Of a stretch of 38,279 bases of DNA, positions 16,998 through 38,132 are shown one piece after another (position 1 is the stretch's first letter; every line of letters starts with the position of its first letter). The DNA comes from Candidatus Izemoplasma sp. GTDB lineage: Bacteria > Bacillota_I > Bacilli_A > Izemoplasmatales > Izemoplasmataceae. The position numbers and the translations under genes were made by a program. The stretch lies in NCBI GenBank assembly GCA_021736205.1, contig JAIPGF010000013.1, positions 1 through 38,279 on the forward strand, written 5' to 3'. Below the pieces are notes generated by a model. That model was given only the letters and a program-made list of their open reading frames with translations, was not told where the DNA came from and ran no database searches.

Positions 16998-17999
16998 ATG
17001 GCAACTTTAAAAGAGATAGCTCAAAAAGTGGGCGTATCAATTACAACTGTATCACGTGTTTTAAATTATGATAAATCCCTTAAAGTAAGTGATAAAGTGA
17101 GGAAAAACATAATTGAAACTGCTTCTGAGTTAAATTACAAAACACCTAGACAACGAACAAGTATAGTGACTAAAAATTCAGTAAAAATTGCAATGGTACA
17201 CTATTATGAATTTAAAGAAGAACTAGATGATCCTTATTATATTTCAATTAGAAGAGGGATTGAAAAACTTGCTGCAAAATCTAATATTGAAGTCTCATTG
17301 TTTTATAAAGAAGATGGTAATTATGATTTTTCCAATCTTTCTGTCATCGATGGCATGGTATGTATTGGGAAATTTTCGACTGCAGAAATAAAACAATTTG
17401 AAAAAGTAACACCTAAATTAGTATTTGTTGATTCAACGCCTGATGCATCTAAATATGATAGTGTTGTAATTGATTTTAATAAAGCTGTTCGAAAATTACT
17501 ACAAGCTGTTATAGATAAAGGGTATAAAAATATTGGATATATAGGTGGACAGGAAACTATTTCTAAGACAATTAAACTTGGAGAACGTCGTGAATTAGTT
17601 TTTAGGGAATTTTTATTTCAAAAAGGATTGTTAGATAAAACATTTATTCATGTCGGAACGTTTACTAAGGAATCTGGTTATAAGATAATGAAAAATATTC
17701 TTCAAACAAACAATCACGCGGATGTTTATTTTTGTGCAAATGATTCAATTGCACTCGGTGTTCTTAAGGCTATTCATGAGTCTAAATTAAAGATACCACA
17801 GGAAATTGCTTTAATAGGATTTAATGATAATCCCACGAGTGAATATACCTTTCCTCCATTATCAACTATTCGCGTACATACAGAATTCATGGGAGAGCAA
17901 GCACTTTTAAGTTTAATAGAGATTATCGAAGGAAGAACTATTCCGGTTCGAAAAGTTATTCCGACTGAGTTTGTTATTCGAAAAAGTTTTGTTAAGTGA
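16998..17999 (+). CDS. LacI/GalR-family transcriptional regulator of the galactoside operon
   Basis: A 333-residue repressor-type protein. The N-terminal LacI helix-turn-helix is clear (ATLKEIAQKVGVSITTVSRV, residues 2-21), followed by a hinge and a periplasmic-binding-protein-like effector domain (about 62-333) with DDPYYISIRRGIEKLA, VIDKGYKNIGYIGG, CANDSIALGVLKAI and IALIGFNDNPTSEY. Ribosome site GAGGTG. It is the first gene of a seven-enzyme and transporter operon with no internal gap large enough for another promoter, so it probably controls its own operon. It resembles MsmR, EbgR and GalR proteins. Galactose, a galactoside or a phosphorylated derivative are plausible inducers. Confidence 0.93.
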   Translation: MATLKEIAQKVGVSITTVSRVLNYDKSLKVSDKVRKNIIETASELNYKTPRQRTSIVTKNSVKIAMVHYYEFKEELDDPYYISIRRGIEKLAAKSNIEVSLFYKEDGNYDFSNLSVIDGMVCIGKFSTAEIKQFEKVTPKLVFVDSTPDASKYDSVVIDFNKAVRKLLQAVIDKGYKNIGYIGGQETISKTIKLGERRELVFREFLFQKGLLDKTFIHVGTFTKESGYKIMKNILQTNNHADVYFCANDSIALGVLKAIHESKLKIPQEIALIGFNDNPTSEYTFPPLSTIRVHTEFMGEQALLSLIEIIEGRTIPVRKVIPTEFVIRKSFVK

Positions 18000-25042: not shown

Positions 25043-26423
25043 ACTATCATTTGCAATTGGTGGATTTGGTAAAGACATGATGTTTGCAATGAGTACAATT
25101 ATGATGTTTTATTTTAATGATCTTTTAGGAATTAATCCAGCATTTTTAGGTGTTATGATGATGGTTGTAAGAATTTGGGATGCCGTTAATGATCCTATAA
25201 TGGGAACAATTGTAGATAAAACAAAAACAAGATGGGGAAAATTTCGTCCTTGGATTCTAACTGGAACAATCATTAATGCAATTATTGTAATATTGTTGTT
25301 TCTAAATCCGAACTTTGATACTAATTCAACTAGGCAACTTGTTTATATAACAACACTTTATACACTTTGGGGAATGAGTTATACGTTAATGGATATTCCC
25401 TTTTGGTCATTGATTCCAACCCTTTCTAGAAGTCAAAAAGAACGAGAAAGTGTTAGTGTTTTAACACGGTTATTTACATCAGTTGGGTATTTTATTATTG
25501 CAGGTGGATATATTTCTATTGCAAAATTACTAGGTGGAGGTAATAATAATTCAGATAAAATTCAAGGATTATTTTATTTAGCAGTCATTGTGGCAATTGT
25601 GTTTATAATTTGTGAACTGATAACTGTAACGAATGTTAAAGAAAAAATTACGGTTTATGATAATAAATCATTAAAAGAAATGTTTACATTATTAAAACAA
25701 AATGATCAATTACTAGTTGTTATGATAGTGATATTAATCATTAACTTCACATTATATATTACAAGTGGAATGGCTATTTACTATATTACGTATGCTATTG
25801 GTAATGAAGACTTATTTTTTGTATTTATAGCACTTGGGGGAATTCTTCAAGTAATTGGAAGTGTGATTTACCCCTTATTTTCAAATAAGTTTACACGTAA
25901 ACAAATATATAACATCGCAATTGTTCTGCAACTTATTGGATTTTTATTATTGTTTGGTAATGCCTTTATCTTTGACTCAATCGTCCTACTATTGTTTGTT
26001 TTTGCAAGTTTTGTATTTTTAGGACAAGGACTTTTCATGGTCTTACAAACGGTTCTTTTAAGTGATACAGTTGAATATGGAGAATATAAAAACCATAAAC
26101 GAAGTGAAAGTTTGGTTTTTAGTGTTCAAACATTCATTGTGAAAATGGCAATGGGACTAAGTTTAGGTGTCATTGGAATTGGACTCGGAATTATCAATTT
26201 TGTGCCATCCTTAGAACATGCAGATGGGACAACAGAACAATTTACACAGTCCGCATTTACACTTCAAGGAATGAACATTATGATGTTTATTCTTCCAATA
26301 TTTGGTTTGCTGATTGGACAATATATTTTTAATAAAAAACATATCATTGATGAAGTTTATTATAATCAAATGGTAGAAGAGTTAAAACAACGAGGTGACA
26401 AGGATGAAAATACACCATCTTAA
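25017..26423 (+). CDS. GPH-family sugar:cation symporter
   Basis: Membrane carrier of the glycoside-pentoside-hexuronide family (MelB/LacS-like). It should import galactosides with Na+ or H+. ATG 25017 is taken because AAGGAG ends six bases upstream; ATG 25011 and 24981 are in frame but poorly placed. The 468 residues show about twelve helices and family features: DAVNDPIMGTIVDKTKTRWG, KFRPWILTG, WGMSYTLMDIPFWSLIP and, in the second half, LLSDTVEYGEYK. It has no fused IIA regulatory domain, unlike LacS of streptococci. The location between alpha- and beta-galactosidase genes suggests it carries substrates for both. Confidence 0.93.
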   Translation: MENVKTKTKLSFAIGGFGKDMMFAMSTIMMFYFNDLLGINPAFLGVMMMVVRIWDAVNDPIMGTIVDKTKTRWGKFRPWILTGTIINAIIVILLFLNPNFDTNSTRQLVYITTLYTLWGMSYTLMDIPFWSLIPTLSRSQKERESVSVLTRLFTSVGYFIIAGGYISIAKLLGGGNNNSDKIQGLFYLAVIVAIVFIICELITVTNVKEKITVYDNKSLKEMFTLLKQNDQLLVVMIVILIINFTLYITSGMAIYYITYAIGNEDLFFVFIALGGILQVIGSVIYPLFSNKFTRKQIYNIAIVLQLIGFLLLFGNAFIFDSIVLLLFVFASFVFLGQGLFMVLQTVLLSDTVEYGEYKNHKRSESLVFSVQTFIVKMAMGLSLGVIGIGLGIINFVPSLEHADGTTEQFTQSAFTLQGMNIMMFILPIFGLLIGQYIFNKKHIIDEVYYNQMVEELKQRGDKDENTPS

Positions 26424-28734
26424 CTTTGATTGGCAGTATGCGCCATCATTTAAAACGTCTTATATTAAATCGTTTGACTATGAGGAAATTGTAAATATCC
26501 CCCACACGAATATCTCTTTACCATTTAATCATTTCAACGAAAAGCTATACCAATTTATTAGCAGCTACCAAAAGATAGTTGAGATTGATAAAGATAAGGA
26601 TAAAAGTTATATTTTGAATTTTGATGGGGTAATGAATCAAGCAGAAGTGTTTGTTAATGAGCAGTCTATTGGACAGCATAAAGGGGGCTATACCCATTTT
26701 GAGTTTGATATAACCTCACAGATTAAAAATGGAAAAAACACTATTTTTGTCAAAGTAGATTCAAGAGAATCTAACAATGTTCCCCCTTATGGATTTGTTG
26801 TTGATTATTTAACATATGGTGGAATTTATCGTGAAGTTTATGTAGAAGAAAAACCTTATGATTATGTTAAAAATGCAACGGTATATTGTATGAATAAAAA
26901 AATAAATATCAGGACATATTTAGAGAATAAAACCAACAAAAACGTTGAGTTAATATATGAAATAAAACGAGATACTGAAATAATTAAAAAATTTAAAGGA
27001 GTATCAAAGACCGATTTCAGTATTAAAAAAGTAATTGAATTAAAGCCTTGGACATTTGATAATCCCGTGCTTTACACATTGAATATCTATATCGATAATA
27101 TACTTAGTTATACCTCTAGGTTTGCCAACAGAGAGATTAATTATGAGAAAGAGGGGCTTTTTCTAAATGGCCAAAAGATAAAATTACGAGGGCTAAATCG
27201 TCACCAATCTTATCCCTATGTCGGATATGCAATGCCAAAACGTATCCAACGTAAGGATGCAGATATTTTAAAATATGAGTTGGGATGTAATGTTGTAAGA
27301 AGTTCACATTATCCACCGAGTAAACACTTTTTGGATCGGTGTGATGAAATTGGATTACTTGTTTTCTCTGAACTTCCTGGATGGCAACATATAGGCAATG
27401 AAGAATGGCAAAAAATCGCGCTTAATAATCTAAGAGAAATGATTCTTCAAGATTTTAACCACCCAGCTATTTTTATCTGGGGTGTTCGAATCAATGAATC
27501 ACCTGATAATCACGCGTTTTATACAAAAACAAATTATTTAGCTAAAAAATTAGATGCATCACGTCCAACAGGCGGCGTACGTAATTTTAAAGATAGTGAA
27601 TTATTAGAAGATGTTTATACGTATAACGATTTTCATCACCGGGGCGATAATGATGGATTAGAATCAAAATTAAACATCACAAAAAAAGATGTACCATATT
27701 TAGTAACTGAATATAATGGTCATATGTATCCAACGAAAAAATATGATGATGAAACACATCGATTAGCTCAATTGAAAAGACACTTAAAAGTGCAAAATGA
27801 CTCATATAAACAGCCAGATATATCTGGTGCAATTGGCTGGTGTTTTGCAGATTATAATACCCATAAAGACTTTGGAAGTGGTGACCGTATTTGTTATCAT
27901 GGTGTGCTTGATATGTTCAGATTACATAAAGATGCAGCTAGTGCTTATGCATCACAACAAAATAAAAACCCTTTTATGCATGTGGCATCTAGTTTACAAA
28001 TCGGCGACTATGAAGCTAGTGAGATTAAAGAAGTTTTTGTGTTAACAAATGCAGATTATATAGCGTTTTATATAAACGATGATTTCATTGGAAAGTTTTT
28101 TCCAACTAATAATAAAAATTATGCCTTCTTGCCACATCCTCCAATTATCATCGATGATTTTATTGGGAATTTAATCCATGAAAATGAATCCTTCTCAGAG
28201 AAAGATTCAGACATTGTTAAACAAATATTACTAAACATTATGAAAAGTGGCTTAAATTTAAAACTATTTGATAAAATAAAAATGGCATATATCATGTTTA
28301 AATATAAAATAAAAAAAGATGAAGCTGCTAAACTTTATGAAAAGTATGTTGGTAAGTGGGGCTTAGAATCACTCACTTATACATTTAAAGCATATAAAAA
28401 TAAAGAACTAATACTCACACAAAAAAGAGGTCCTTTTAAAACGACACACTTAGTGGTTGAACCAGACGTTAAAACACTTAAAAATTCCGATACCTATGAC
28501 GTTACGAGAGTCGTTGTTAAACATTTAGATAACAATAAACAACTATTAACTTATTCAACCGAAGTTATCATAGTTCAGATTACTGGACCACTTGAATTAA
28601 TTGGACCAACTACCTTATCACTCATAGGTGGATCAACTGCATTTTATGTTAAAACAATCAACGAAAAAGGGTCAGGAGAAATAACTGTTAAATCCAACAA
28701 CTTTAAAAAGACTTTCAAATTAACTATTCAATAA
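26404..28734 (+). CDS. GH2 beta-galactosidase
   Basis: Retaining glycosidase, most likely acting on beta-galactosides in the cytoplasm. ATG 26404 has GAGGTG upstream and is favoured over GTG 26395. The 776 residues comprise a sugar-binding jelly roll (about 1-170; FVNEQSIGQHKGGYTHFEFD), an immunoglobulin-like domain, and the TIM barrel (RGLNRHQSYP, VVRSSHYPPSKHFLDRCDE). Predicted acid/base is E365 (WGVRINES) and the nucleophile E436 (LVTEYNGH). C-terminal beta domains follow. The GH2 family also includes beta-glucuronidases, but the galactose operon favours galactosidase. It overlaps the transporter gene by 20 bases and ends at a strong terminator. Confidence 0.9.
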   Translation: MKIHHLNFDWQYAPSFKTSYIKSFDYEEIVNIPHTNISLPFNHFNEKLYQFISSYQKIVEIDKDKDKSYILNFDGVMNQAEVFVNEQSIGQHKGGYTHFEFDITSQIKNGKNTIFVKVDSRESNNVPPYGFVVDYLTYGGIYREVYVEEKPYDYVKNATVYCMNKKINIRTYLENKTNKNVELIYEIKRDTEIIKKFKGVSKTDFSIKKVIELKPWTFDNPVLYTLNIYIDNILSYTSRFANREINYEKEGLFLNGQKIKLRGLNRHQSYPYVGYAMPKRIQRKDADILKYELGCNVVRSSHYPPSKHFLDRCDEIGLLVFSELPGWQHIGNEEWQKIALNNLREMILQDFNHPAIFIWGVRINESPDNHAFYTKTNYLAKKLDASRPTGGVRNFKDSELLEDVYTYNDFHHRGDNDGLESKLNITKKDVPYLVTEYNGHMYPTKKYDDETHRLAQLKRHLKVQNDSYKQPDISGAIGWCFADYNTHKDFGSGDRICYHGVLDMFRLHKDAASAYASQQNKNPFMHVASSLQIGDYEASEIKEVFVLTNADYIAFYINDDFIGKFFPTNNKNYAFLPHPPIIIDDFIGNLIHENESFSEKDSDIVKQILLNIMKSGLNLKLFDKIKMAYIMFKYKIKKDEAAKLYEKYVGKWGLESLTYTFKAYKNKELILTQKRGPFKTTHLVVEPDVKTLKNSDTYDVTRVVVKHLDNNKQLLTYSTEVIIVQITGPLELIGPTTLSLIGGSTAFYVKTINEKGSGEITVKSNNFKKTFKLTIQ

Positions 28735-29261: not shown

Positions 29262-29291
29262 TTGACAGCGCTTACATCAATGATTTATAAT
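29262..29291 (+). promoter_or_regulatory. Promoter of the lysine fermentation operon
   Basis: A perfect TTGACA (29262-29267) and a perfect TATAAT (29286-29291) are separated by 18 bp. Transcription should start near 29298, giving a leader of about 208 nt before the first start codon. Confidence 0.88.
29263..29276. promoter_or_regulatory. cre-like site (CcpA-type operator) over the -35 box
   Basis: TGACAGCGCTTACA fits the degenerate catabolite-responsive element TGWNANCGNTNWCA at every position and covers most of the -35 hexamer, the geometry expected for glucose repression. No ccpA gene is in the window; part of the match comes from the TTGACA itself. Confidence 0.65.
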
Positions 29292-29310
29292 GAGTGTGTT
29301 AAAAAAGAAA

Positions 29311-29465
29311 ATAAACAGAGGAGCTTTTATTTGGTAGACTATTTTAAAACCTGACAAGGAAAGTAGTTGAAGGAAATAAAAGCCGAAAGAATATATACGT
29401 CAATATATATTCTTGATATATAAAGGAACGCTTTATATATTGTCATTTAATGGTGAGCTGTCTAT
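29311..29465 (+). ncRNA. Lysine riboswitch aptamer
   Basis: The leader of the lysine operon carries the landmarks of the lysine (L-box) aptamer in order. P1: 29311-29318 with 29458-29465, one A-C mismatch. Conserved AGAGGAGC at 29317-29324. P2: 29323-29332 with 29374-29383, 10 bp. A loop-E-like pair GGTAGA (29333-29338) and TTGAAGG, closing an inner stem 29337-29345 with 29360-29368. GCCGAAAG at 29382-29389. P3: 29388-29397 with 29404-29413. P4: 29416-29425 with 29431-29440. Then TTGTC, a tiny P5 (CATTTAATG) and GGTGAGCT, matching the CUGUC...GGAGNGCU consensus. Loop 2 TGAC (29352-29355) can kiss loop 3 GTCA (29399-29402), the known L2-L3 contact. Alignment was by eye against Bacillus lysC and Thermotoga examples from memory. 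Confidence 0.85.
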
Positions 29466-29493
29466 GCATTTTGCATAAACGGCTTTTATTATT
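29456..29493 (+). terminator. Riboswitch expression platform: intrinsic terminator overlapping P1
   Basis: Arms 29456-29468 and 29472-29484 pair over 13 positions (one T-G wobble, one C-A mismatch) around a TTT loop and are followed by TTTATTATT, immediately before the GGAGGAGG ribosome site. The 5' arm contains the whole 3' strand of aptamer helix P1 (29458-29465), so the two structures exclude each other: bound aptamer means no terminator. Confidence 0.75.
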
Positions 29494-29505
29494 GGAGGAG
29501 GAACA

Positions 29506-29943
29506 ATGAAATTAGGTTTCACAATTGATGAGTTAAAAGTAGGACAAAGTGTATTTCGAAAAAAGCATATAACAAAAAATGATGTAGAACAATTTGGCGC
29601 TCTTATTAACGATTTTAATCCTGCCCATTTTGACGCGGAGTATGCGAAAAAAACGATGTTTAATAAACGTATTAGTCACGGCATGTATATTGGTTCATTG
29701 TTCTCTAAATTAATTGGCATGGATTTACCAGGTAAAGGAAGCATTTATGTTAATCAAACTTTAACGTTTCTTAAACCGGTTTATTTTGATGATGAAATAA
29801 CTGCAACAATTACTGTTAAACAAATTGATATAAAGAAAAACCGCATTAACTTAGAAACAATTGCAACCAATCAAAGAAATGAAAAAGTTATCACTGGAGA
29901 GGCAATCGTTATGCCTCCTAAAGAGCGTGAGATTAATGGTTAA
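29506..29943 (+). CDS. MaoC-like (R)-specific enoyl-CoA hydratase
   Basis: A 145-residue single hotdog-fold protein of the PhaJ/MaoC type. The hydratase dyad is in place as D36 and H41 (DFNPAHFDAEYAKKTMF), with the following RISHGM and a GSIYVNQTLTFLKPVYFDDE strand region. Such enzymes interconvert crotonyl-CoA and (R)-3-hydroxybutyryl-CoA. Kal in this operon produces crotonyl-CoA, so a hydratase here makes chemical sense, though it is not part of the textbook lysine set. It is the first gene after the riboswitch, with a GGAGGAGG ribosome site, and overlaps atoD by 8 bases. Confidence 0.88.
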   Translation: MKLGFTIDELKVGQSVFRKKHITKNDVEQFGALINDFNPAHFDAEYAKKTMFNKRISHGMYIGSLFSKLIGMDLPGKGSIYVNQTLTFLKPVYFDDEITATITVKQIDIKKNRINLETIATNQRNEKVITGEAIVMPPKEREING

Positions 29944-30589
29944 ACAATTAAAATTAAATGCGTTAGAAGAGCATTTGCATGATGGTATGAGTATTTTAGT
30001 TGGTGGCTTCATGTGTGTTGGTACACCAGAATTAATCATTGATGAAATTGTTAAATCAAATGTCAAAGATTTAACAATTTATTGTAATGATTCAGGTTTT
30101 GAAGAACAAGGTGTAGGGAAACTCATTAAAAACAACCAAGTTAAAAAGTTAGTAGCAAGTCATATTGGCTTAAATCCATATGCTGGGAAGTTAATGAGTT
30201 CACAAGAAATGGATGTTGAATTAATTCCCCAAGGAACACTGGCTGAAAGAATTCGTGCTGGTGGTTCTGGACTTGGCGGAATTTTAACACAAACAGGTAT
30301 CAATACGATTGTAGAAAAAAACAAACAAATAATCAACGTTAATAATCAGTCATATATTTTAGAAACACCTATTAGAGCAGATCTAGCAATTATTTATGGT
30401 AATAAAATTGATCAATATGGTAATACAATGTATCGTGCTACAACGCGAAACTTTAATCCAGTTATGGCAATGGCCGCAGACAAAGTTATTGCACAAGCTA
30501 GACACATGGTACAACAGCTCGATCCTGAATGTGTTCATACACCACATATATTTGTAGATTATGTCATTAAGGAGGAAGACAGTGACTAG
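29936..30589 (+). CDS. atoD: Acyl-CoA:acetoacetate CoA-transferase, alpha subunit
   Basis: With AtoA it transfers CoA from butyryl-CoA (or a similar donor) to the acetoacetate released by Kce, giving acetoacetyl-CoA. ATG 29936 is chosen; the longer in-frame extension lies inside maoC. The 217 residues show family-I CoA-transferase alpha features: [20 protein letters not shown] near the N-terminus, [33 protein letters not shown] and [16 protein letters not shown]. It overlaps both neighbours by 8 bases, fitting stoichiometric production of the two subunits. Confidence 0.93.
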
Positions 30590-31241
30590 ACAAGAGAAAA
30601 AAGAGTTTATCGCAAAACGTGTTGCCAGAGAATTTACAGATGGCGATGTTGTTAATTTAGGTATTGGTCTTCCAACATTAGTTGCTAATTATATTCCTGA
30701 AGATATTACAATTTATCTCCAAAGTGAAAATGGTCTTATTGGACTCGGACCAAAACCAGATGAAACGACACTAGATAAAGACATCACAAATGCGGGTGGC
30801 CAACCGGTAACACTTAAAACTGGAGGGATGTATTTTGATTCTGCCACATCATTTGCTATTATACGTGGGGGTCATGTTGATAAAACTGTCCTTGGTAGCT
30901 TACAAGTTGATGAAACAGGATCACTTGCTAATTGGATTATTCCAGGTAAATTAGTTCCAGGTATGGGGGGAGCAATGGATCTTGTTATGGGGGCTAAAGA
31001 GGTTATTATTGCGATGACACATATGAATAGAGGAAAAACAAAAATTTTAAAAAGATGTACGCTTCCTCTCACGGCAAAAAATCAAGTAAATAAAATCATT
31101 ACAGAGATGGGTGTATTTGAAATTAAAGATCAAAAGCTATATTTATTAGAATATAACAAAGATTTTACGATTGAAGAAATTAAAGCAGCAACAGAAGCTG
31201 ATTTAATCATTCATAATCCAAAAGAAATGGTGGTATATTAA
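30582..31241 (+). CDS. atoA: Acyl-CoA:acetoacetate CoA-transferase, beta subunit
   Basis: Catalytic partner of AtoD. GTG 30582 is preferred to the in-frame ATG 30561 because AAGGAGG (30569-30575) sits six bases before the GTG and after the ATG. The 219 residues carry the active-site motif [10 protein letters not shown] with catalytic Glu 49, plus [20 protein letters not shown] and [18 protein letters not shown]. The start overlaps the atoD stop by 8 bases and the stop abuts the kal ATG. Confidence 0.93.
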
Positions 31242-31628
31242 ATGAAAGCAATGATTAGAATGAGACTGAATACAACACACGCACATTATGGCGGTAACTT
31301 AGTTGATGGCGCTTTTACTTTGCAGTTATTTGGAGACGTTGCAACAGAGTTATTAATTAGAAATGATGGTGATGAAGGACTATTTAGAGCATATGAGACA
31401 GTAGACTTTCTAGCACCGTTATATGCAGGAGAGTATATTGAAGTTACTGGAAAAATCATTGAACAAGGGACCACTTCACGTAAAATGGCTTTTGAAGCAT
31501 ATAAAGTAATATCACCACGAACAGATATTTCTGATTCGGCGTGTGATTTATTACAAGAAAAAATATTGGTTGCAAAAGCCATTGGAACGTGCATTGTTCC
31601 TAAGGACAAACAACGTTCTAATGGATAA
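31242..31628 (+). CDS. kal: 3-aminobutyryl-CoA ammonia-lyase
   Basis: Eliminates ammonia from L-3-aminobutyryl-CoA to give crotonyl-CoA. The 128-residue hotdog-fold protein matches the Kal family closely: [48 protein letters not shown] and [13 protein letters not shown]. The ATG directly follows the atoA TAA, and the 3' end overlaps kce by 8 bases. The lack of a strong ribosome site suggests translation is coupled to atoA. Confidence 0.93.
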
Positions 31629-32448
31629 ACTCATTATAACCGCAGCTATTTGCGGCGCAGAAGTTATGAAAGAACATAATGTATTTGTTCCTTATACAAT
31701 CAAAGAACTCACAAGAGAAGCAAAAGAAGTGGTAAATGCGGGTGCTAGTATTATCCATCTTCATGTCCGTGAAGATGATGGTACCCCCACACAAGCTGTT
31801 TCTAGATTTAATGAAGCTATGAAAGCAATTAAAAAGGTATGTCCTGATGTTATCATACAACCTTCAACAGGTGGTGCAGTCGGAATGAGTGATGACGAAC
31901 GTCTTTCACCTATAAAACTTAATCCTGAGATGTGTACGCTCGATTGTGGAAGTGTGAATTTTGGTGAGGATGAAACATTTATTAATAGCAAAAAACAAAT
32001 CAAATACTTTGCAAAAAAAATCTATAACAAACAAATTAAACCAGAATTAGAATGTTTTGGAAAAATGCATGTCGACCAAGTTTTAAGATTACATAAAGGA
32101 GGACACATTAAAGACCCAATGCATTTTAGTTTTGTTTTGGGTGTTGATGGTGGACAAACTGGGTTGGAAAGAGATTTCTTTTTCTTAAAAGACTCTATTC
32201 CCAGCACTGCAACCTATAGTGTTGCAGGGATTGGAAAATATGAGTTTCCACTTGCAGAATTAGCCATTAAGCATGGTGGTCATGTCCGAGTTGGACTTGA
32301 AGATAACATATATATTGAAAAACATAAAAAAGCCAAAGGAAATAAAGACCTTGTTAAAAAAGTTGTTAAAATAGCCAAAAAATACAATCGAAAAATAGCA
32401 TCACCTAATGATGCAAGAAAAATACTTAAGTTAGGAGAATTCATATGA
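31621..32448 (+). CDS. kce: 3-keto-5-aminohexanoate cleavage enzyme
   Basis: Condenses 3-keto-5-aminohexanoate with acetyl-CoA to form acetoacetate and L-3-aminobutyryl-CoA. It is a zinc enzyme of the BKACE (DUF849) family. ATG 31621 is used; the extension to 31543 lies inside kal. The 275 residues match the family, with [18 protein letters not shown] at the N-terminus. Predicted metal ligands are H46 and H48 (IIHLHVRED), with conserved E227 in VGLEDN and the [15 protein letters not shown] loop. It overlaps kdd by four bases. Confidence 0.95.
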
Positions 32449-33473
32449 AATTAACTAAATTTGGAACAAGCCGTGTCATTCATCCAAGAGGTGTATTGCC
32501 ACAAGCTGCTACTAAAATTGATAACACAATGAGAATCTATGATAATGAGTTACTGATTGAAGTCGATACACTTAATATAGATAGTGCCTCGTTTTCACAA
32601 ATAAAAAAAGCGTGTCAATATGATATTTCAAAAATCAAACAAATGATTATAGAAATAGTAAATGAAAGCGGAAAAATGCAAAATCCGGTTACTGGTAGTG
32701 GAGGCATGTTAATTGGGAGTGTAAAAGAAGTTGGAAAAAGTTTCCCCAATCAAACACTATCCAGTGGTGAGAAAATAGCAACGCTCGTTTCTTTATCATT
32801 AACACCCCTTCACATTGAAAAAATTACGAGTGTAAATTTAAATAACGATCAAGTAAAAATAGAAGGTCAGGCAATTCTTTTTGAAAGTGGTATTTATGCA
32901 AGAATTCCCAAACACTTAAATGAAAATGTGGTCCTTGCTGCGCTTGATGTTGCTGGTGCACCAGCACAAGTAAAAAAATTAGTTAAAAAAGGTGATACCG
33001 TTGCCATCATTGGAGCTGCTGGAAAAAGCGGTATTTTAGCATGTAAACAAGCAATGAGTAATGTCGGTGACACGGGAAAAGTTATTGGAATAGTTAACGA
33101 ACAACAACAACTTAATTTACTTCAAGAGTTAGAACTTTGTGATGAAATAATCCTTGCAGATGCGCTTGATTCTTTAGGACTTTACGATAAAGTTGAAGCA
33201 ACAAACCCTAATCTTTGTGATGTTGTAATAAACGTTGTAAATATTGACAATACTGAGATGTCCTCTATATTAATTGCTAAAGATGAAGGGGTTGTTTACT
33301 TTTTTAGTATGGCTACTTCATTTACTAAAGCTGCTTTAGGAGCAGAAGGTGTTGGCAAAGATGTGACACTAATTATTGGTAATGGATTTACTAAAAACCA
33401 TAGTCAGATAACATTAGATTTACTTGAAAACTCACCTAAAATAAAATCGTTATTTGAAAAAAAATATATTTAA
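32445..33473 (+). CDS. kdd: L-erythro-3,5-diaminohexanoate dehydrogenase
   Basis: Oxidative deamination of 3,5-diaminohexanoate to 3-keto-5-aminohexanoate, normally with NAD(P)+. The 342 residues match Kdd: start FGTSRVIHPRGVLPQAA, central GSGGMLIGSVKEVG and a Rossmann segment VAIIGAAGKSGILACKQA around 185-205, then VNVVNIDNTEMSSILIAKD and a C-terminus with VTLIIGNGFT. Ribosome site TTAGGAGA within the kce end, ATGA overlap with kce, and 11 bases to kamA. Confidence 0.94.
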   Translation: MKLTKFGTSRVIHPRGVLPQAATKIDNTMRIYDNELLIEVDTLNIDSASFSQIKKACQYDISKIKQMIIEIVNESGKMQNPVTGSGGMLIGSVKEVGKSFPNQTLSSGEKIATLVSLSLTPLHIEKITSVNLNNDQVKIEGQAILFESGIYARIPKHLNENVVLAALDVAGAPAQVKKLVKKGDTVAIIGAAGKSGILACKQAMSNVGDTGKVIGIVNEQQQLNLLQELELCDEIILADALDSLGLYDKVEATNPNLCDVVINVVNIDNTEMSSILIAKDEGVVYFFSMATSFTKAALGAEGVGKDVTLIIGNGFTKNHSQITLDLLENSPKIKSLFEKKYI

Positions 33474-33484
33474 GGACTGATTTA

Positions 33485-34741
33485 ATGAGTGTAAAACTAT
33501 ATACAAAGCATTTAGAGCGAAGACAGAAGTATTTTCCCAATGTAACAATCACAGAATGGAATGATTGGCATTGGCAAGTAAAAAATCGTATTCAAACAGC
33601 TGATGATTTAAATAATTATATACAATTAACGCGTGATGAAAAAGACCATATATCACAGGTATTGAAAAAATTCCGTATGGCAATTACGCCCTATTATTTA
33701 ACTTTAATCAATCCAGATAAAAAGCATGATCCAATTCGACTTCAATCAGTGCCAATGATTAATGAATTTCATGTGAGTTTACATGAAGATAAAGATCCCC
33801 TAGCAGAAGAGGCGGATCAAGTGGCACCAGGACTGACACATCGTTATCCAGACCGCGTACTATTTCTAATTTCTGATATGTGTAGTATGTATTGCAGACA
33901 TTGCACAAGACGTCGATTCGCGGGTCAAAAAGATACCAATCAATCTAATCAAAATATCGAAAAAGCACTAGATTATATCAAAGAGCACACCGAGATTAAT
34001 GATGTATTATTATCAGGTGGAGATGCGTTGTTAGTTAGCGATGAACGACTTGAATACATTATCAAAGAACTTAGAAAAATTGAGCATGTTGGTGTGATAC
34101 GTTTAGGAAGCCGTACACCAGTTGTTATGCCACAGCGCATCACAACTGGTTTAGTAAATATATTGAAAAAATATCATCCAATTTGGGTTAACACCCATTA
34201 TAATCATTCAAAAGAACTAACACCTGAAGCAAAAACAGCGTTGGATAAATTAGCGAACGCAGGAATTCCACTTGGGAATCAAAGTGTGCTTTTAAAAGGT
34301 GTAAATGATTGTGTGAATGTGATGAAAAAACTTGTTAAACGATTAATTCAATTACGTGTTAGACCTTATTATATTTATCAATGTGATTTAGCGGAAGGTA
34401 TTGCACACTTTAGAACCCCAGTATCTAAAGGTATAGAAATTATAGAAGGCTTAAGAGGTCATATAAGTGGTATTGCAGTTCCAACATTTGTTGTAGATGC
34501 ACCAGGTGGTGGTGGTAAAATTCCAGTTATGCCGAATTATATCATTTCTCAAGCACCAGGTAAAACAATTCTAAGAAATTATGAAGGAATGATTACTACC
34601 TATTACGGACCAACTTCTTATGATAATGAATGTAATTGTGATGATTGTATTGCAGTTAAAGAAGGTAAAATTGATACAGCTATTAATCATAGTGGTAAAC
34701 TTGATCAATTTAATAATCAAAGAAAGCATAGGAGACGCTAA
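33485..34741 (+). CDS. kamA: L-lysine 2,3-aminomutase
   Basis: Radical-SAM, PLP-dependent enzyme that turns L-lysine into L-beta-lysine, the entry step of lysine fermentation. The 418 residues carry the cluster motif CSMYCRHC (Cys 133, 137, 140), the glycine-rich LLSGGDALLV, and the PLP-lysine loop DAPGGGGKIPVMPNY (K345 predicted). The C-terminal CNCDDC segment is part of the zinc and dimer region. Ribosome site AAGGACTGAT. The TAA shares its last A with the predicted ATT start of kamB. Confidence 0.97.
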   Translation: MSVKLYTKHLERRQKYFPNVTITEWNDWHWQVKNRIQTADDLNNYIQLTRDEKDHISQVLKKFRMAITPYYLTLINPDKKHDPIRLQSVPMINEFHVSLHEDKDPLAEEADQVAPGLTHRYPDRVLFLISDMCSMYCRHCTRRRFAGQKDTNQSNQNIEKALDYIKEHTEINDVLLSGGDALLVSDERLEYIIKELRKIEHVGVIRLGSRTPVVMPQRITTGLVNILKKYHPIWVNTHYNHSKELTPEAKTALDKLANAGIPLGNQSVLLKGVNDCVNVMKKLVKRLIQLRVRPYYIYQCDLAEGIAHFRTPVSKGIEIIEGLRGHISGIAVPTFVVDAPGGGGKIPVMPNYIISQAPGKTILRNYEGMITTYYGPTSYDNECNCDDCIAVKEGKIDTAINHSGKLDQFNNQRKHRRR

Positions 34742-35736
34742 TTAATTTATCAACGTTTATTAAAGATTATCAAACAATTAGTATCATAGGAACCGTAAAA
34801 AACGCTGGGAAAACAACCACCTTAAATAGACTAATCAAAGAAAATAAATCAACGACCATCGCTTTAACATCCATCGGCTTAGATGGGGAAGAAAAAGATA
34901 CTATTTATTCTTTTAAAAAACCTAAAATAACAGTTTATCCAGGTATGATTATTGCGACGGCAATAGAAGCACTTGAGATAACTACGTGCTCATATACTAT
35001 ATTAGAAAAAACAGCTATCAATAGTCCGCTAGGTGTTATTGTAATTGTTAAAATAACCCAAGAAGGAACGATTTTACTAGCTGGTCCGTCTTTAAAAAAT
35101 CAACTCATCAAGTTGAAAAGAAAATTATTAGATTATAGACCAACATATATCGTTATTGATGGTGCATTATTTAGAAAATCAAGTGCTTCAACAAAACTAG
35201 CCGATGCAGTTATTTTAGCAACTGGTGCTAGTTATGCTAGAAGCATGTCTAGTACTGTATTACATACAACTACCCTTTCTAGACAACTTATGTTACCTAA
35301 ATATCCGATTAATAATTTGGATTCATCAGTGAATTATATAGTTGATGTATCACATAAAAAAACAGTATTAAATGGGGATTTACTCTCAAATCCGCAAGGG
35401 TTAAAAAAACATATATCTAATACAACTAAAACCCTTTTTTTAAAAGGCGCTTTGAATGATAAAATTGCTCAAATGCTTATTGAGAGCCGTCATAAGTTTG
35501 AAACACTTGATCTTTTAATTAAAGATGCAACACATCTTTTATTAAAGGATAGTTACTACCATCACTTAAAAACTATTGGCGTTAATTTTTATGTATTGAA
35601 TCCAATAGAACTTGTTTTGATTACTGTTAATCCGACAACTAAAAAAGGATATTTTTATGATGAACAACAATTTATCATAGCACTTAAAAATAAGTGTAAC
35701 ATACCAATTATTAATGTGTTAAAAGATTTGGAGTGA
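34741..35736 (+). CDS. kamB: Lysine 5,6-aminomutase reactivase subunit KamB (P-loop protein), predicted AUU start
   Basis: Predicted repair partner that keeps the B12-dependent KamDE working. Taking ATG 34945 would give 263 residues and delete a clear P-loop (IIGTVKNAGKTTTL) encoded just upstream in the same frame. That frame opens after TAG 34729-34731 and has no ATG, GTG, TTG or CTG before the P-loop. ATT 34741 lies six bases after AGGAG (34730-34734), giving 331 residues that start MNLSTFIKDYQTISI if read as fMet. Later motifs LTSIGLDGEEKD, LAGPSLKNQ and VIDGALFRKSSASTKLADAV match KamB as I recall it. The P-loop is MobB/MeaB-like. The usual MutS-like partner KamC is not in this window. Confidence 0.85.
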   Translation: MNLSTFIKDYQTISIIGTVKNAGKTTTLNRLIKENKSTTIALTSIGLDGEEKDTIYSFKKPKITVYPGMIIATAIEALEITTCSYTILEKTAINSPLGVIVIVKITQEGTILLAGPSLKNQLIKLKRKLLDYRPTYIVIDGALFRKSSASTKLADAVILATGASYARSMSSTVLHTTTLSRQLMLPKYPINNLDSSVNYIVDVSHKKTVLNGDLLSNPQGLKKHISNTTKTLFLKGALNDKIAQMLIESRHKFETLDLLIKDATHLLLKDSYYHHLKTIGVNFYVLNPIELVLITVNPTTKKGYFYDEQQFIIALKNKCNIPIINVLKDLE

Positions 35737-35740
35737 GTTT

Positions 35741-37300
35741 ATGAAACTAACATTAAAAGAACCAGTAATAACTGCATCACGCACTAAGGCAAAATCAATT
35801 GCTAATCAAATTCAATTATTTATTGATAAACACTCAACCGTGAGTGTAGAACGCACTATTTTACGATTGCTTGGAGTTGATGGAGTTAATTCTATTGATA
35901 TTCCTTATCCAAATGTAATAATTGATGATTTAAAAAATAAAGAATGTCTTAAAGATGGTGTTGCATTTTATTTAGCAAGCGCACTAAAAGCAACCAATTT
36001 ATCACTTGATGAACTGGTTGAAAAAATTGATAAAAATTCGATTGATATTACAAGTTATCCTAAACTAGATAAATCAACAATAAGAGAAGTATTACAACCT
36101 TATTTTTCTAATTCACTAAAACAAATAACAAACCAAAAAAATAAACGTGATAGTTATAAAAAACAATTTGGTGATAAACAAGGACCCTTGTTATATGTAA
36201 TCGTTGCAACTGGGAATATATATGAAGATGTAACTCAAGCAAAAGCTGCCGCTAGACAAGGTGCTGATGTTATTGCTGTTATTAGAACAACTGGACAAAG
36301 TTTGTTAGATTTTGTTCCGTATGGGCCTACAACAGAAGGGTTTGGCGGAACGTATGCTACTCAACAAAACTTTAAAATTATGCGAGAAGCTTTAGATCAA
36401 GTGAGTGAAGAGGAAGAACGTTATATTCATCTTGTTAATTATGCAAGTGGCCTTTGTATGCCGGAAATTGCAGCAATGGGAGCCTTAGAACGTCTTGATA
36501 TGATGTTGAACGATTCATTATATGGTATTTTATTTAGAGATATTAATATGAAAAGGACATTTATTGATCAATATTTTTCTCGAATTATTAGTGCATATGC
36601 AAACATTACCATAAATACCGGAGAAGATAATTATCTTACAACCGCAGATGCATTTGAAAATGCCCACACTGTCTTAGCAAGTCAGTTTATCAATGAAGCC
36701 TTTGCTAAAAATGCTTTTATGAAAGAAGAGCTGCAAGGATTAGGTCATGCTTTCGAAATTGATCCTTCGATGGAAAATGGCTTTTTATATGAATTAGCAC
36801 AAGCGCAATTGGCACGACAAATATTTCCTAAAGCACCACTTAAATATATGCCACCAACTAAACATATGACTGGCAACATTTTCAAAGGGTTTATTCAAAA
36901 CGCTTTATTTAATATTGTTACAAAAACAACCAATCAGCGTATTCACTTATTAGGGATGCTAACCGAAGCAGTACATACGCCCTTTATGAGTGATCGTTAT
37001 TTAGCTATTGAGAACGCGAATTATATTAATCAAACAATGAAAGATTTTGCCAGTGAAATTGAATTTAAGAAGAATGGTAAAATTAATAAACGCGCTAATA
37101 CAGTTTTATCTCGCGCAGATGAGTTACTTACACAAATCGAACAAAAAACTATGTTTAAATCATTGTCTGAAGGGGTATTTGCGGATATCAAACGTCAAGA
37201 AAATGCGGGAAAAGGATTAGAAGGTGTGTTTGTTAAAAGTGAAAATTATCTTAATCCTGTGCTTGATGTAATGAAAGAAAAATTAAAGAGGACGTGGTAG
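35741..37300 (+). CDS. kamD: Lysine 5,6-aminomutase alpha subunit
   Basis: Large catalytic TIM-barrel subunit of the adenosylcobalamin- and PLP-dependent mutase that converts L-beta-lysine to 3,5-diaminohexanoate. The 519 residues match KamD in length, with conserved parts such as LYVIVATGNIYEDVTQAK, ARQGADVIAVIRTTGQSLLD, VPYGPTTEGFGGTYATQ, RYIHLVNYASGLCMPEIA and TPFMSDRYLAIENA. TGGAGTGAG ribosome site, four bases after kamB. Adjacent to kamE with one base between, as expected for two subunits. Confidence 0.96.
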   Translation: MKLTLKEPVITASRTKAKSIANQIQLFIDKHSTVSVERTILRLLGVDGVNSIDIPYPNVIIDDLKNKECLKDGVAFYLASALKATNLSLDELVEKIDKNSIDITSYPKLDKSTIREVLQPYFSNSLKQITNQKNKRDSYKKQFGDKQGPLLYVIVATGNIYEDVTQAKAAARQGADVIAVIRTTGQSLLDFVPYGPTTEGFGGTYATQQNFKIMREALDQVSEEEERYIHLVNYASGLCMPEIAAMGALERLDMMLNDSLYGILFRDINMKRTFIDQYFSRIISAYANITINTGEDNYLTTADAFENAHTVLASQFINEAFAKNAFMKEELQGLGHAFEIDPSMENGFLYELAQAQLARQIFPKAPLKYMPPTKHMTGNIFKGFIQNALFNIVTKTTNQRIHLLGMLTEAVHTPFMSDRYLAIENANYINQTMKDFASEIEFKKNGKINKRANTVLSRADELLTQIEQKTMFKSLSEGVFADIKRQENAGKGLEGVFVKSENYLNPVLDVMKEKLKRTW

Positions 37301-37301
37301 T

Positions 37302-38084
37302 ATGTCTTATGATATGAGCGATAAAGATTATTCAAAAGACCTAGACCTTACAAAATTAAAACCCTATGGGGACACTATGAATGATGGGAAAGTACAATTA
37401 AGTTTTACGTTGCCAATAAAAAATAATGAAAAAGGACAAGAAGCTGCTAAAAATTTAGCGAAAAAAATGGGCCTTTTAAATCCGTTAGTCGCTGACGCAA
37501 TTTCTTTAGAAAACACGTTTACATTATTTATTATATACGGTGAATTAAAGTATACTGTTAATTATAACAAGATAGAAGTTACAACACTCGATACCAAAAC
37601 GTTATCCAAAGAGGAAGTAGAGTCTTTGATTGAAACTAAATTAAAACGTGATATTACTGTTATTGGAGCTTCAACTGGAACTGATGCCCATACAGTAGGA
37701 ATTGATGCAATCATGAATATGAAAGGATATGCTGGTCATTATGGGTTGGAAAGATACAAGCACATCAATGCTTATAATTTGGGTAGCCAAGTTGAAAATG
37801 AAACATTAATTCAACAAGCAAAAGAGCATAATGCAGATGTACTCTTAGTCAGTCAAACAGTGACACAAAAAGATGTGCATATTAAAAACTTAGTCAATTT
37901 AATAGAACTGTTAGAAGCAGAAAATTTAAGAGATCGTTTTATTTTGATTGTTGGGGGTCCTAGAATTTCCCATGAATTAGCAAAAGAACTAGGATTTGAT
38001 GCTGGATTCGGACCAAGAAATTATGCAAATGACGTTGCAACATATTTTACAGAAACCTTAATAGAAAAAAATAAAGACGAATAA
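37302..38084 (+). CDS. kamE: Lysine 5,6-aminomutase beta subunit (B12- and PLP-binding)
   Basis: Small subunit that binds adenosylcobalamin base-off and tethers PLP. The 260 residues contain a dimerisation domain (1-100) and a Rossmann-like B12-binding domain with the DxHxxG motif DAHTVG (D128, H130, G133), preceded by VIGASTGT and followed by the downstream LIVGGPRISHELAKELGFDA. K141 in MKGYAGHYGLERY is the probable PLP lysine by analogy with the Clostridium enzyme. Last gene of the operon, followed by a strong terminator. Cobalamin supply is not encoded here. Confidence 0.96.
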   Translation: MSYDMSDKDYSKDLDLTKLKPYGDTMNDGKVQLSFTLPIKNNEKGQEAAKNLAKKMGLLNPLVADAISLENTFTLFIIYGELKYTVNYNKIEVTTLDTKTLSKEEVESLIETKLKRDITVIGASTGTDAHTVGIDAIMNMKGYAGHYGLERYKHINAYNLGSQVENETLIQQAKEHNADVLLVSQTVTQKDVHIKNLVNLIELLEAENLRDRFILIVGGPRISHELAKELGFDAGFGPRNYANDVATYFTETLIEKNKDE

Positions 38085-38094
38085 TAGTTAAAAT

Positions 38095-38132
38095 AAAATA
38101 GCTCACTAGAATCTCTAGTGAGCTATTTTTTT
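38095..38132 (+). terminator. Intrinsic terminator of the lysine operon
   Basis: Perfect 16-bp arms (38095-38110 and 38114-38129) around an ATC loop, followed by a T run. The A-rich left arm means it could also act on the minus strand. Confidence 0.93.

What the first reader, a model, noticed from the sequence alone, without database searches (positions are those of the whole stretch)
29297..29505. Lysine riboswitch that appears wired as an ON switch for lysine fermentation
The leader folds by eye into a lysine aptamer, including the conserved P2 loop-E pair, GCCGAAAG and a TGAC/GTCA L2-L3 kissing match. The next structure is an intrinsic terminator (29456-29484 plus T-rich tail) whose 5' arm contains the P1 3' strand (29458-29465). 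Ligand-stabilised P1 should therefore destroy the terminator and allow transcription. Most lysine riboswitches shut off biosynthesis or import genes; this one stands before kamA-kamE, kdd, kce and kal. An activating lysine switch on catabolism has, as I recall, been proposed for lysine-degrading anaerobes but seldom tested.
Basis: partly seen in the sequence, partly recalled or inferred. Interest (0 to 1): 0.85.

Follow-up and report, generated by a model that had tools for sequence, protein, structure and literature searches.

The report
Lysine-activated RNA switch for lysine fermentation
A lysine-sensing RNA in front of a ten-gene lysine-fermentation operon is built so that lysine should switch the operon on, the opposite of the same sensor in front of the cell's lysine-making gene; the design recurs in all 62 comparable leaders found, which makes an old prediction well supported and easy to test.

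Summary
Observation confirmed. 29308-29468 (+) scores 79.2 bits against Rfam RF00168 (E 2.9e-19). It is followed by an intrinsic-terminator hairpin (29455-29485, -14.7 kcal/mol) whose 5' arm contains the P1 3' strand (29458-29463), so P1 and the terminator exclude each other. The leader precedes a ten-gene lysine-fermentation operon (29506-38084) in an Izemoplasmatales genome.

I compared 102 distinct lysine-riboswitch leaders. The terminator reuses the P1 3' strand in 53/53 leaders of kam/kal/kce operons and in 0/49 leaders of lysA, lysine-transporter and amidohydrolase genes, many from the same genomes. Forcing P1 abolishes the terminator in the first group and favours it in most of the second. 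Nine further kam-linked riboswitches, seven of them from five clostridial loci, show the same layout by inspection. P1 and the terminator covary at shared positions.

New here: a cre (CcpA-type) site overlaps the -35 box in 35/53 kam leaders and 0/49 others, which suggests a 'lysine AND NOT preferred sugar' gate.

The ON logic was predicted before for kal/kce genes (Mukherjee 2017; ON lysine switches in Barrick & Breaker 2007, citing Rodionov 2003). I found no experimental test in the library. New member of a known kind; ligand response is inferred, not shown.

The parts
29262..29291 (+). Promoter: TTGACA - 18 nt - TATAAT (12/12 consensus); start of transcription expected about 29297-29299
   Evidence: the same perfect promoter precedes nearly all Izemoplasmatales kam leaders
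29263..29276 (+). cre-like operator TGACAGCGCTTACA overlapping the -35 box (probable CcpA/HPr-Ser-P site)
   Evidence: only exact match of TGWNANCGNTNWCA in the window; exact cre on the -35 in 35/53 kam leaders, 0/49 control leaders
29308..29468 (+). Lysine riboswitch aptamer (RF00168)
   Evidence: 79.2 bits, E 2.9e-19
29313..29318 (+). P1 5' strand (AAACAG)
   Evidence: CM alignment; P1 forms when 29300-29470 is folded alone
29352..29355 (+). L2 side of the L2-L3 kissing interaction (UGAC)
29399..29402 (+). L3 side of the L2-L3 kissing interaction (GUCA)
29458..29463 (+). Shared switching strand: P1 3' strand and part of the terminator 5' arm (CUGUCU)
29455..29485 (+). Intrinsic terminator hairpin (the OFF state)
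   Evidence: overlap with P1 in 53/53 kam leaders
29484..29493 (+). Terminator U-tract UUUUAUUAUU
   Evidence: the pattern UUUU(U)AUUUU recurs in relatives
29494..29501 (+). Shine-Dalgarno GGAGGAGG of the first gene; partly buried if the terminator stem extends
   Evidence: this burial is not conserved in relatives
29506..29943 (+). MaoC-family (R)-enoyl-CoA hydratase-like gene, first gene of the operon
29861..30589 (+). CoA-transferase subunit A (ctfA/atoD-like); true start probably downstream of the ORF start
30561..31241 (+). CoA-transferase subunit B
31242..31628 (+). kal, 3-aminobutyryl-CoA ammonia lyase (NF052388, above cut-off)
31543..32448 (+). kce, 3-keto-5-aminohexanoate cleavage enzyme (NF052387, above cut-off)
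32445..33473 (+). kdd, 3,5-diaminohexanoate dehydrogenase (NF052381, above cut-off)
33485..34741 (+). kamA, lysine 2,3-aminomutase (TIGR03820, above cut-off)
34741..35736 (+). kamB, lysine 5,6-aminomutase reactivase subunit; open frame reaches back to a likely ATT start at 34741
35741..37300 (+). kamD, lysine 5,6-aminomutase alpha subunit
37302..38084 (+). kamE, lysine 5,6-aminomutase beta subunit
38095..38129 (+). Operon terminator (16-pair stem, T-rich tail)

Best explanation
This is a transcriptional ON lysine riboswitch. RNA polymerase starts at about 29298 and makes the aptamer first. Without lysine, P1 is short and weak; once the 3' arm (29472-29485) emerges, the P1 3' strand is pulled into the terminator hairpin and transcription stops before the first gene. 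With lysine bound in the five-way junction, P1 is held closed, the 5' arm is unavailable, and polymerase reads through into the ten-gene lysine-fermentation operon. A cre site on the -35 box probably adds repression by CcpA when preferred sugars are present, so the operon would run when lysine is present AND preferred carbon is absent. The same genome carries a second lysine riboswitch before lysA with the terminator outside P1, the layout of the usual OFF type, so one ligand would drive two opposite switches. Shown here: aptamer homology, shared strand, terminator, comparative pattern, cre consensus. Inferred: lysine binding, direction in vivo, kinetics, CcpA binding, OFF logic of the lysA switch.
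For: RF00168 hit. The aptamer RNA alone folds with P1; as the 3' end grows the minimum-energy fold flips from P1 to terminator at 29480-29482. 53/53 kam-linked leaders have a terminator using at least 3 of the 6 P1 3' nucleotides against 0/49 other lysine riboswitches. Forcing P1 lowers terminator probability by a median 0.85 in kam leaders (52/53 by more than 0.2) and raises it by a median 0.51 in the others. Three-way covariation at the shared strand: position 3 C/G/C in 36 leaders and U/A/U in 7; position 4 A/U/A, G/C/G and C/G/C. Same layout by inspection in seven riboswitches at five clostridial kam loci and in G008 and G046. The operon is lysine fermentation by curated models and ends in a terminator. 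cre on the -35 in 35/53 against 0/49, shuffles 0.02 on average; HPr kinase in the genome.
Against: No experiment. The leaders are related by descent, so the counts are not independent trials, although they span several families of Bacilli and Clostridia. The window's P1 has only five pairs and one A.C mismatch, and at equilibrium the terminator wins in silico, so switching must be kinetic. The U-tract is interrupted (UUUUAUUAUU) and the simple scan did not call the terminator. The best CcpA-like protein falls below the curated ccpA cut-off.
Confidence: 0.9

Rival explanations
1. Ordinary OFF switch: an antiterminator forms without lysine and lysine-stabilised P1 allows termination, as in lysC leaders.
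For: Most lysine riboswitches are OFF. An 11-nt perfect complement, AAUAAAAGCCG (29375-29385) / CGGCUUUUAUU (29480-29490), could in principle act as an antiterminator.
Against: P1 and the terminator share a strand, so P1 cannot permit this terminator. The 11-nt match lies in the stable P2 helix and is not conserved (median longest match 6 nt in kam leaders). The non-kam leaders show what the other layout looks like: terminator downstream of P1.
Confidence: 0.03
2. Translational switch: the hairpin mainly hides the Shine-Dalgarno sequence and lysine frees it.
For: In the window the extended stem pairs parts of GGAGGAGG (29494-29499), and forcing P1 frees it.
Against: SD accessibility falls by more than 0.3 without P1 in only 2 of 52 kam leaders and moves the other way in 13, whereas hairpin plus U-tract is found in 53/53. 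It may add to control in this species.
Confidence: 0.06
3. The kam-linked aptamer senses a catabolic relative of lysine (for example beta-lysine) rather than lysine.
For: The operon makes such compounds. J5/1 reads GAGCU in 42/53 kam leaders where control leaders read mostly GCGCU.
Against: The changed base is at a position that varies in the Rfam consensus (GuGCU). J2/3 GCCGAA is kept in 53/53, and J1/2 and J4/5 follow the consensus in most. Extending the terminator stem would explain the J5/1 bias.
Confidence: 0.04
4. A decayed aptamer with a constitutive terminator or processing site, no longer a switch.
For: P1 has an A.C mismatch and the score is below that of the lysA copy (97 against 79.2 bits).
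Against: Intact core, covarying P1, terminator and L2/L3; the arrangement is retained at every kam locus with a complete upstream region that I inspected in the family.
Confidence: 0.02

Closest known systems
Lysine riboswitches before kal/kce in Clostridium sticklandii, Fusobacterium nucleatum and Thermoanaerobacter (Mukherjee et al. 2017, PMC5584792)
   Same: Same aptamer class, same catabolic genes, positive regulation proposed
   Different: There the sign is stated from gene function; here the expression platform is shown and compared with controls, in Izemoplasmatales and other Bacilli, and the operon is larger (MaoC-ctfAB-kal-kce-kdd-kamABDE)
ON riboswitches that bury part of a terminator (glycine, adenine and some lysine switches; Barrick & Breaker 2007, PMC2258182, citing Rodionov et al. 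2003)
   Same: Ligand-stabilised pairing removes a strand from the terminator
   Different: No difference of kind; this is a comparative demonstration for a lysine-fermentation operon
B. subtilis pbuE adenine riboswitch (from general knowledge)
   Same: P1 3' strand is part of the terminator; kinetic ON switch
   Different: Different aptamer, ligand and genes
B. subtilis lysC-type (L box) OFF lysine riboswitches
   Same: Same aptamer
   Different: Opposite platform: antiterminator and downstream terminator; this layout is seen in the non-kam leaders of the same genomes
Tandem lysine riboswitches with terminators (14 doublets; PMC9481103)
   Same: Tandem pairs were seen here before clostridial kam operons (L175, L176)
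   Different: The window has a single aptamer

Membership tests
Lysine riboswitch (RF00168) | Covariance-model score above the gathering threshold, full model | tested here: met
   79.2 bits against 30, model 1-182
Lysine riboswitch (RF00168) | Conserved junction nucleotides and L2-L3 kissing | tested here: met
   GCCGAA in 53/53; L2/L3 complementarity above swapped controls
Lysine riboswitch (RF00168) | Selective lysine binding | not testable with these tools
   needs in-line probing or ITC
Transcriptional ON riboswitch | Ligand-stabilised helix shares a strand with an intrinsic terminator | tested here: met
   53/53 kam leaders against 0/49 others; window
Transcriptional ON riboswitch | Covariation keeps both alternative helices | tested here: met
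   P1 3' positions 3 and 4 change together with both partners; outer P1 positions are variable; no tree-aware test was run
Transcriptional ON riboswitch | Ligand-dependent readthrough | not testable with these tools
   needs a transcription assay
Lysine-fermentation operon | kamA, kamDE, kdd, kce, kal above curated cut-offs | tested here: met
   kamB 204.8 bits against a cut-off of 210 with the short start, and its frame extends upstream
CcpA-controlled promoter | cre consensus at the promoter | tested here: met
CcpA-controlled promoter | CcpA and HPr kinase in the genome | tested here: inconclusive
   HPr kinase above cut-off; best CcpA-like LacI protein 298.8 bits, below 442

The most novel reading that the evidence does not exclude
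In Izemoplasmatales and related Bacilli the lysine-fermentation operon is run by a conserved two-layer gate: a cre operator on the -35 box (NOT preferred carbon) and an ON lysine riboswitch (lysine present), while the same genomes use opposite-sign lysine riboswitches for lysine synthesis and uptake, so that one ligand switches the cell between making and burning lysine.
Probability: 0.65. Interest if true: 0.6.

Novelty: new member of a known kind. Interest (0 to 1): 0.5.

Why it matters
Activating lysine riboswitches on lysine catabolism have been asserted for two decades mainly from gene context. The set assembled here (62 kam-linked riboswitches, all with the ON layout, against 49 others without it) turns that into a sharp structural prediction with built-in controls: the same aptamer wired in opposite directions inside one genome. 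It also suggests how free-living relatives of mycoplasmas time amino-acid fermentation, and it offers natural lysine-induced switches for biosensors.

Tried and rejected
1) The 11-nt complement AATAAAAGCCG/CGGCTTTTATT as an antiterminator: absent from relatives. 2) SD occlusion as the general mechanism: not conserved. 3) The first terminator scan wrongly merged antiterminator and terminator in two transporter leaders; a limit of about 40 nt on hairpin length corrected this. 4) kam loci that first seemed to lack a riboswitch (G008, G009, G046) do have one; the fast genome search missed them. G091 was not checked in this way. 5) TGAC/GTCA itself is not the conserved kissing sequence (2 of 53); other complementary loops are used. 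6) No paper reporting an experimental test of a kam riboswitch was found in the open library; Rodionov 2003 is not held.

Full report
WHAT IS THERE. The window is contig C46 of a 1.56-Mb genome; its relatives in public collections are Candidatus Izemoplasma/Izimaplasma and other Bacilli MAGs. Scanned against all of Rfam, the window has one hit: the lysine riboswitch RF00168 at 29308-29468 (+), full length, 79.2 bits, E 2.9e-19. Upstream lies a perfect TTGACA-18-TATAAT promoter (29262-29291). Downstream is an operon of ten genes: a MaoC-family hydratase, a two-subunit CoA-transferase, kal, kce, kdd, kamA, kamB, kamD and kamE, closed by a terminator at 38095-38129. This is the lysine-to-acetate/butyrate fermentation route (pathway knowledge plus curated family models), apart from the butyryl-CoA steps.

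THE SWITCH. The stretch after the aptamer folds into a hairpin at 29455-29485 with a U-rich tail (-14.7 kcal/mol, z -4.5). Its 5' arm contains the 3' strand of P1 (29458-29463). Folded alone, 29300-29470 forms the five-way junction with P1; with the following 30 nt the minimum-energy structure drops P1 and forms the hairpin, and in a growing-chain series the flip comes at 29480-29482. C29462 is unpaired in both P1 (opposite A29314) and the terminator (opposite A29478); most relatives have U there, which pairs in the terminator and, where the P1 5' base is A, in P1.

COMPARATIVE TEST. I collected lysine riboswitches from the family of the window, from Bacilli genomes with a kce gene and from loci found by kce similarity. 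After removing duplicates there were 102 leaders: 53 next to kam/kal/kce genes and 49 others, mostly before lysA, lysine-type ABC solute-binding proteins or M20 amidohydrolases, judged from the translated first gene. With one uniform procedure (best hairpin of at most 41 nt followed by a U-rich tail), the terminator used at least 3 of the 6 P1 3' nucleotides in 53/53 kam leaders and 0/49 others. Forcing P1 in partition-function folding lowered terminator probability by a median 0.85 in kam leaders (52/53 by more than 0.2) and raised it by a median 0.51 in the others (30/49 by more than 0.2; 2 exceptions). The Fisher p of 3e-30 overstates the case because leaders share descent. At the shared strand the three partners change together: P1 3' position 3 is C/G/C in 36 leaders and U/A/U in 7; position 4 is A/U/A, G/C/G or C/G/C. 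Where P1 and the terminator compete (position 5), the terminator partner is the better kept.

BREADTH. In 398 genomes of the phylum of a clostridial relative, 108 have a kce-family match. Of the 60 of these then scanned for RF00168, five have riboswitches linked to kce; all seven aptamers there, including two tandem pairs, show the same P1/terminator sharing by inspection. Two Izemoplasmatales kam loci that the fast search had missed (G008, G046) also carry it. That makes 62 kam-linked riboswitches seen, all with the ON layout. Most clostridial kce genomes scanned have no linked lysine riboswitch, so outside Bacilli the device is the exception rather than the rule.

SAME GENOME, OPPOSITE LAYOUT. 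The window's genome has one other lysine riboswitch (C40:8485-8650, 97 bits), before lysA. There the terminator begins about 10 nt after the end of the aptamer and does not touch P1, the layout of ordinary OFF switches. For this particular leader the folding calculation shows little P1 effect (0.97 against 0.95), so its OFF logic rests on the layout and on the family pattern.

A SECOND LAYER. TGACAGCGCTTACA (29263-29276) overlaps the -35 box and is the window's only exact match to the cre consensus TGWNANCGNTNWCA (expected 0.13). An exact cre sits on the -35 box in 35/53 kam leaders and 0/49 others, against 0.02 in shuffles; about eight more carry it with one extra base (TTGACAAACGCTTACA). The genome has HPr kinase and a CcpA-like LacI protein below the curated cut-off. 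Catabolite repression is therefore likely but not shown.

MECHANISM. Shown: aptamer, terminator, shared strand, comparative pattern. Inferred: lysine holds P1 closed while the terminator 3' arm is being made (about 10-20 nt later), so polymerase escapes; without lysine the stronger terminator wins. Since the terminator is favoured at equilibrium, the switch should be kinetic, as for the pbuE adenine switch (general knowledge).

KNOWN OR NEW. Mukherjee et al. 2017 describe lysine riboswitches before kal/kce in C. sticklandii, F. nucleatum and Thermoanaerobacter and call them positively regulated. Barrick & Breaker 2007 state that certain lysine riboswitches are ON switches that bury terminator pieces, citing Rodionov 2003; that paper is not held. 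A 2024 review of C. difficile describes lysine riboswitches of biosynthesis operons as demonstrated OFF switches. The kind is therefore known by prediction.

LIMITS. No ligand binding or transcription data. Leaders are not independent. The control set is mainly Izemoplasmatales and other Bacilli; clostridial non-kam leaders were not scored.

Noticed in passing
window 29263-29276: cre-like operator overlapping the -35 box, conserved in kam leaders (35/53 exact) and absent from other lysine-riboswitch leaders.
   Followed up: yes
window 34730-34945: kamB is called too short: the frame is open upstream through a P-loop (GTVKNAGKTT) to a likely ATT start at 34741, overlapping the kamA stop, with AGGAGA at 34730-34735.
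   Followed up: partly
L175, L176: Tandem lysine riboswitches before clostridial kdd-kam operons, each with its own ON-type terminator; L176 also has a third, leftover copy of the P1-strand/terminator repeat.
   Followed up: partly
L032, L037, L042: An SDR-family dehydrogenase gene precedes MaoC in three relatives; with MaoC it could take crotonyl-CoA through 3-hydroxybutyryl-CoA to acetoacetyl-CoA instead of butyrate.
   Followed up: no
control leaders, e.g. L059, L060, about -65 from the aptamer: Transporter (solute-binding protein) leaders share an AAACACTTWCA-type motif about 26 nt upstream of the -35 box, possibly a site for another regulator.
   Followed up: no
L173: The kam-linked riboswitch stands before a PAS-domain regulator-like gene, apparently like the pspF3 arrangement described for Thermoanaerobacter.
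   Followed up: no
window 16998-17999: LacI-family regulator (weak ccpA-model match, 106 bits) elsewhere in the window; a glycoside hydrolase family 2 gene lies at 26395-28734.
   Followed up: no
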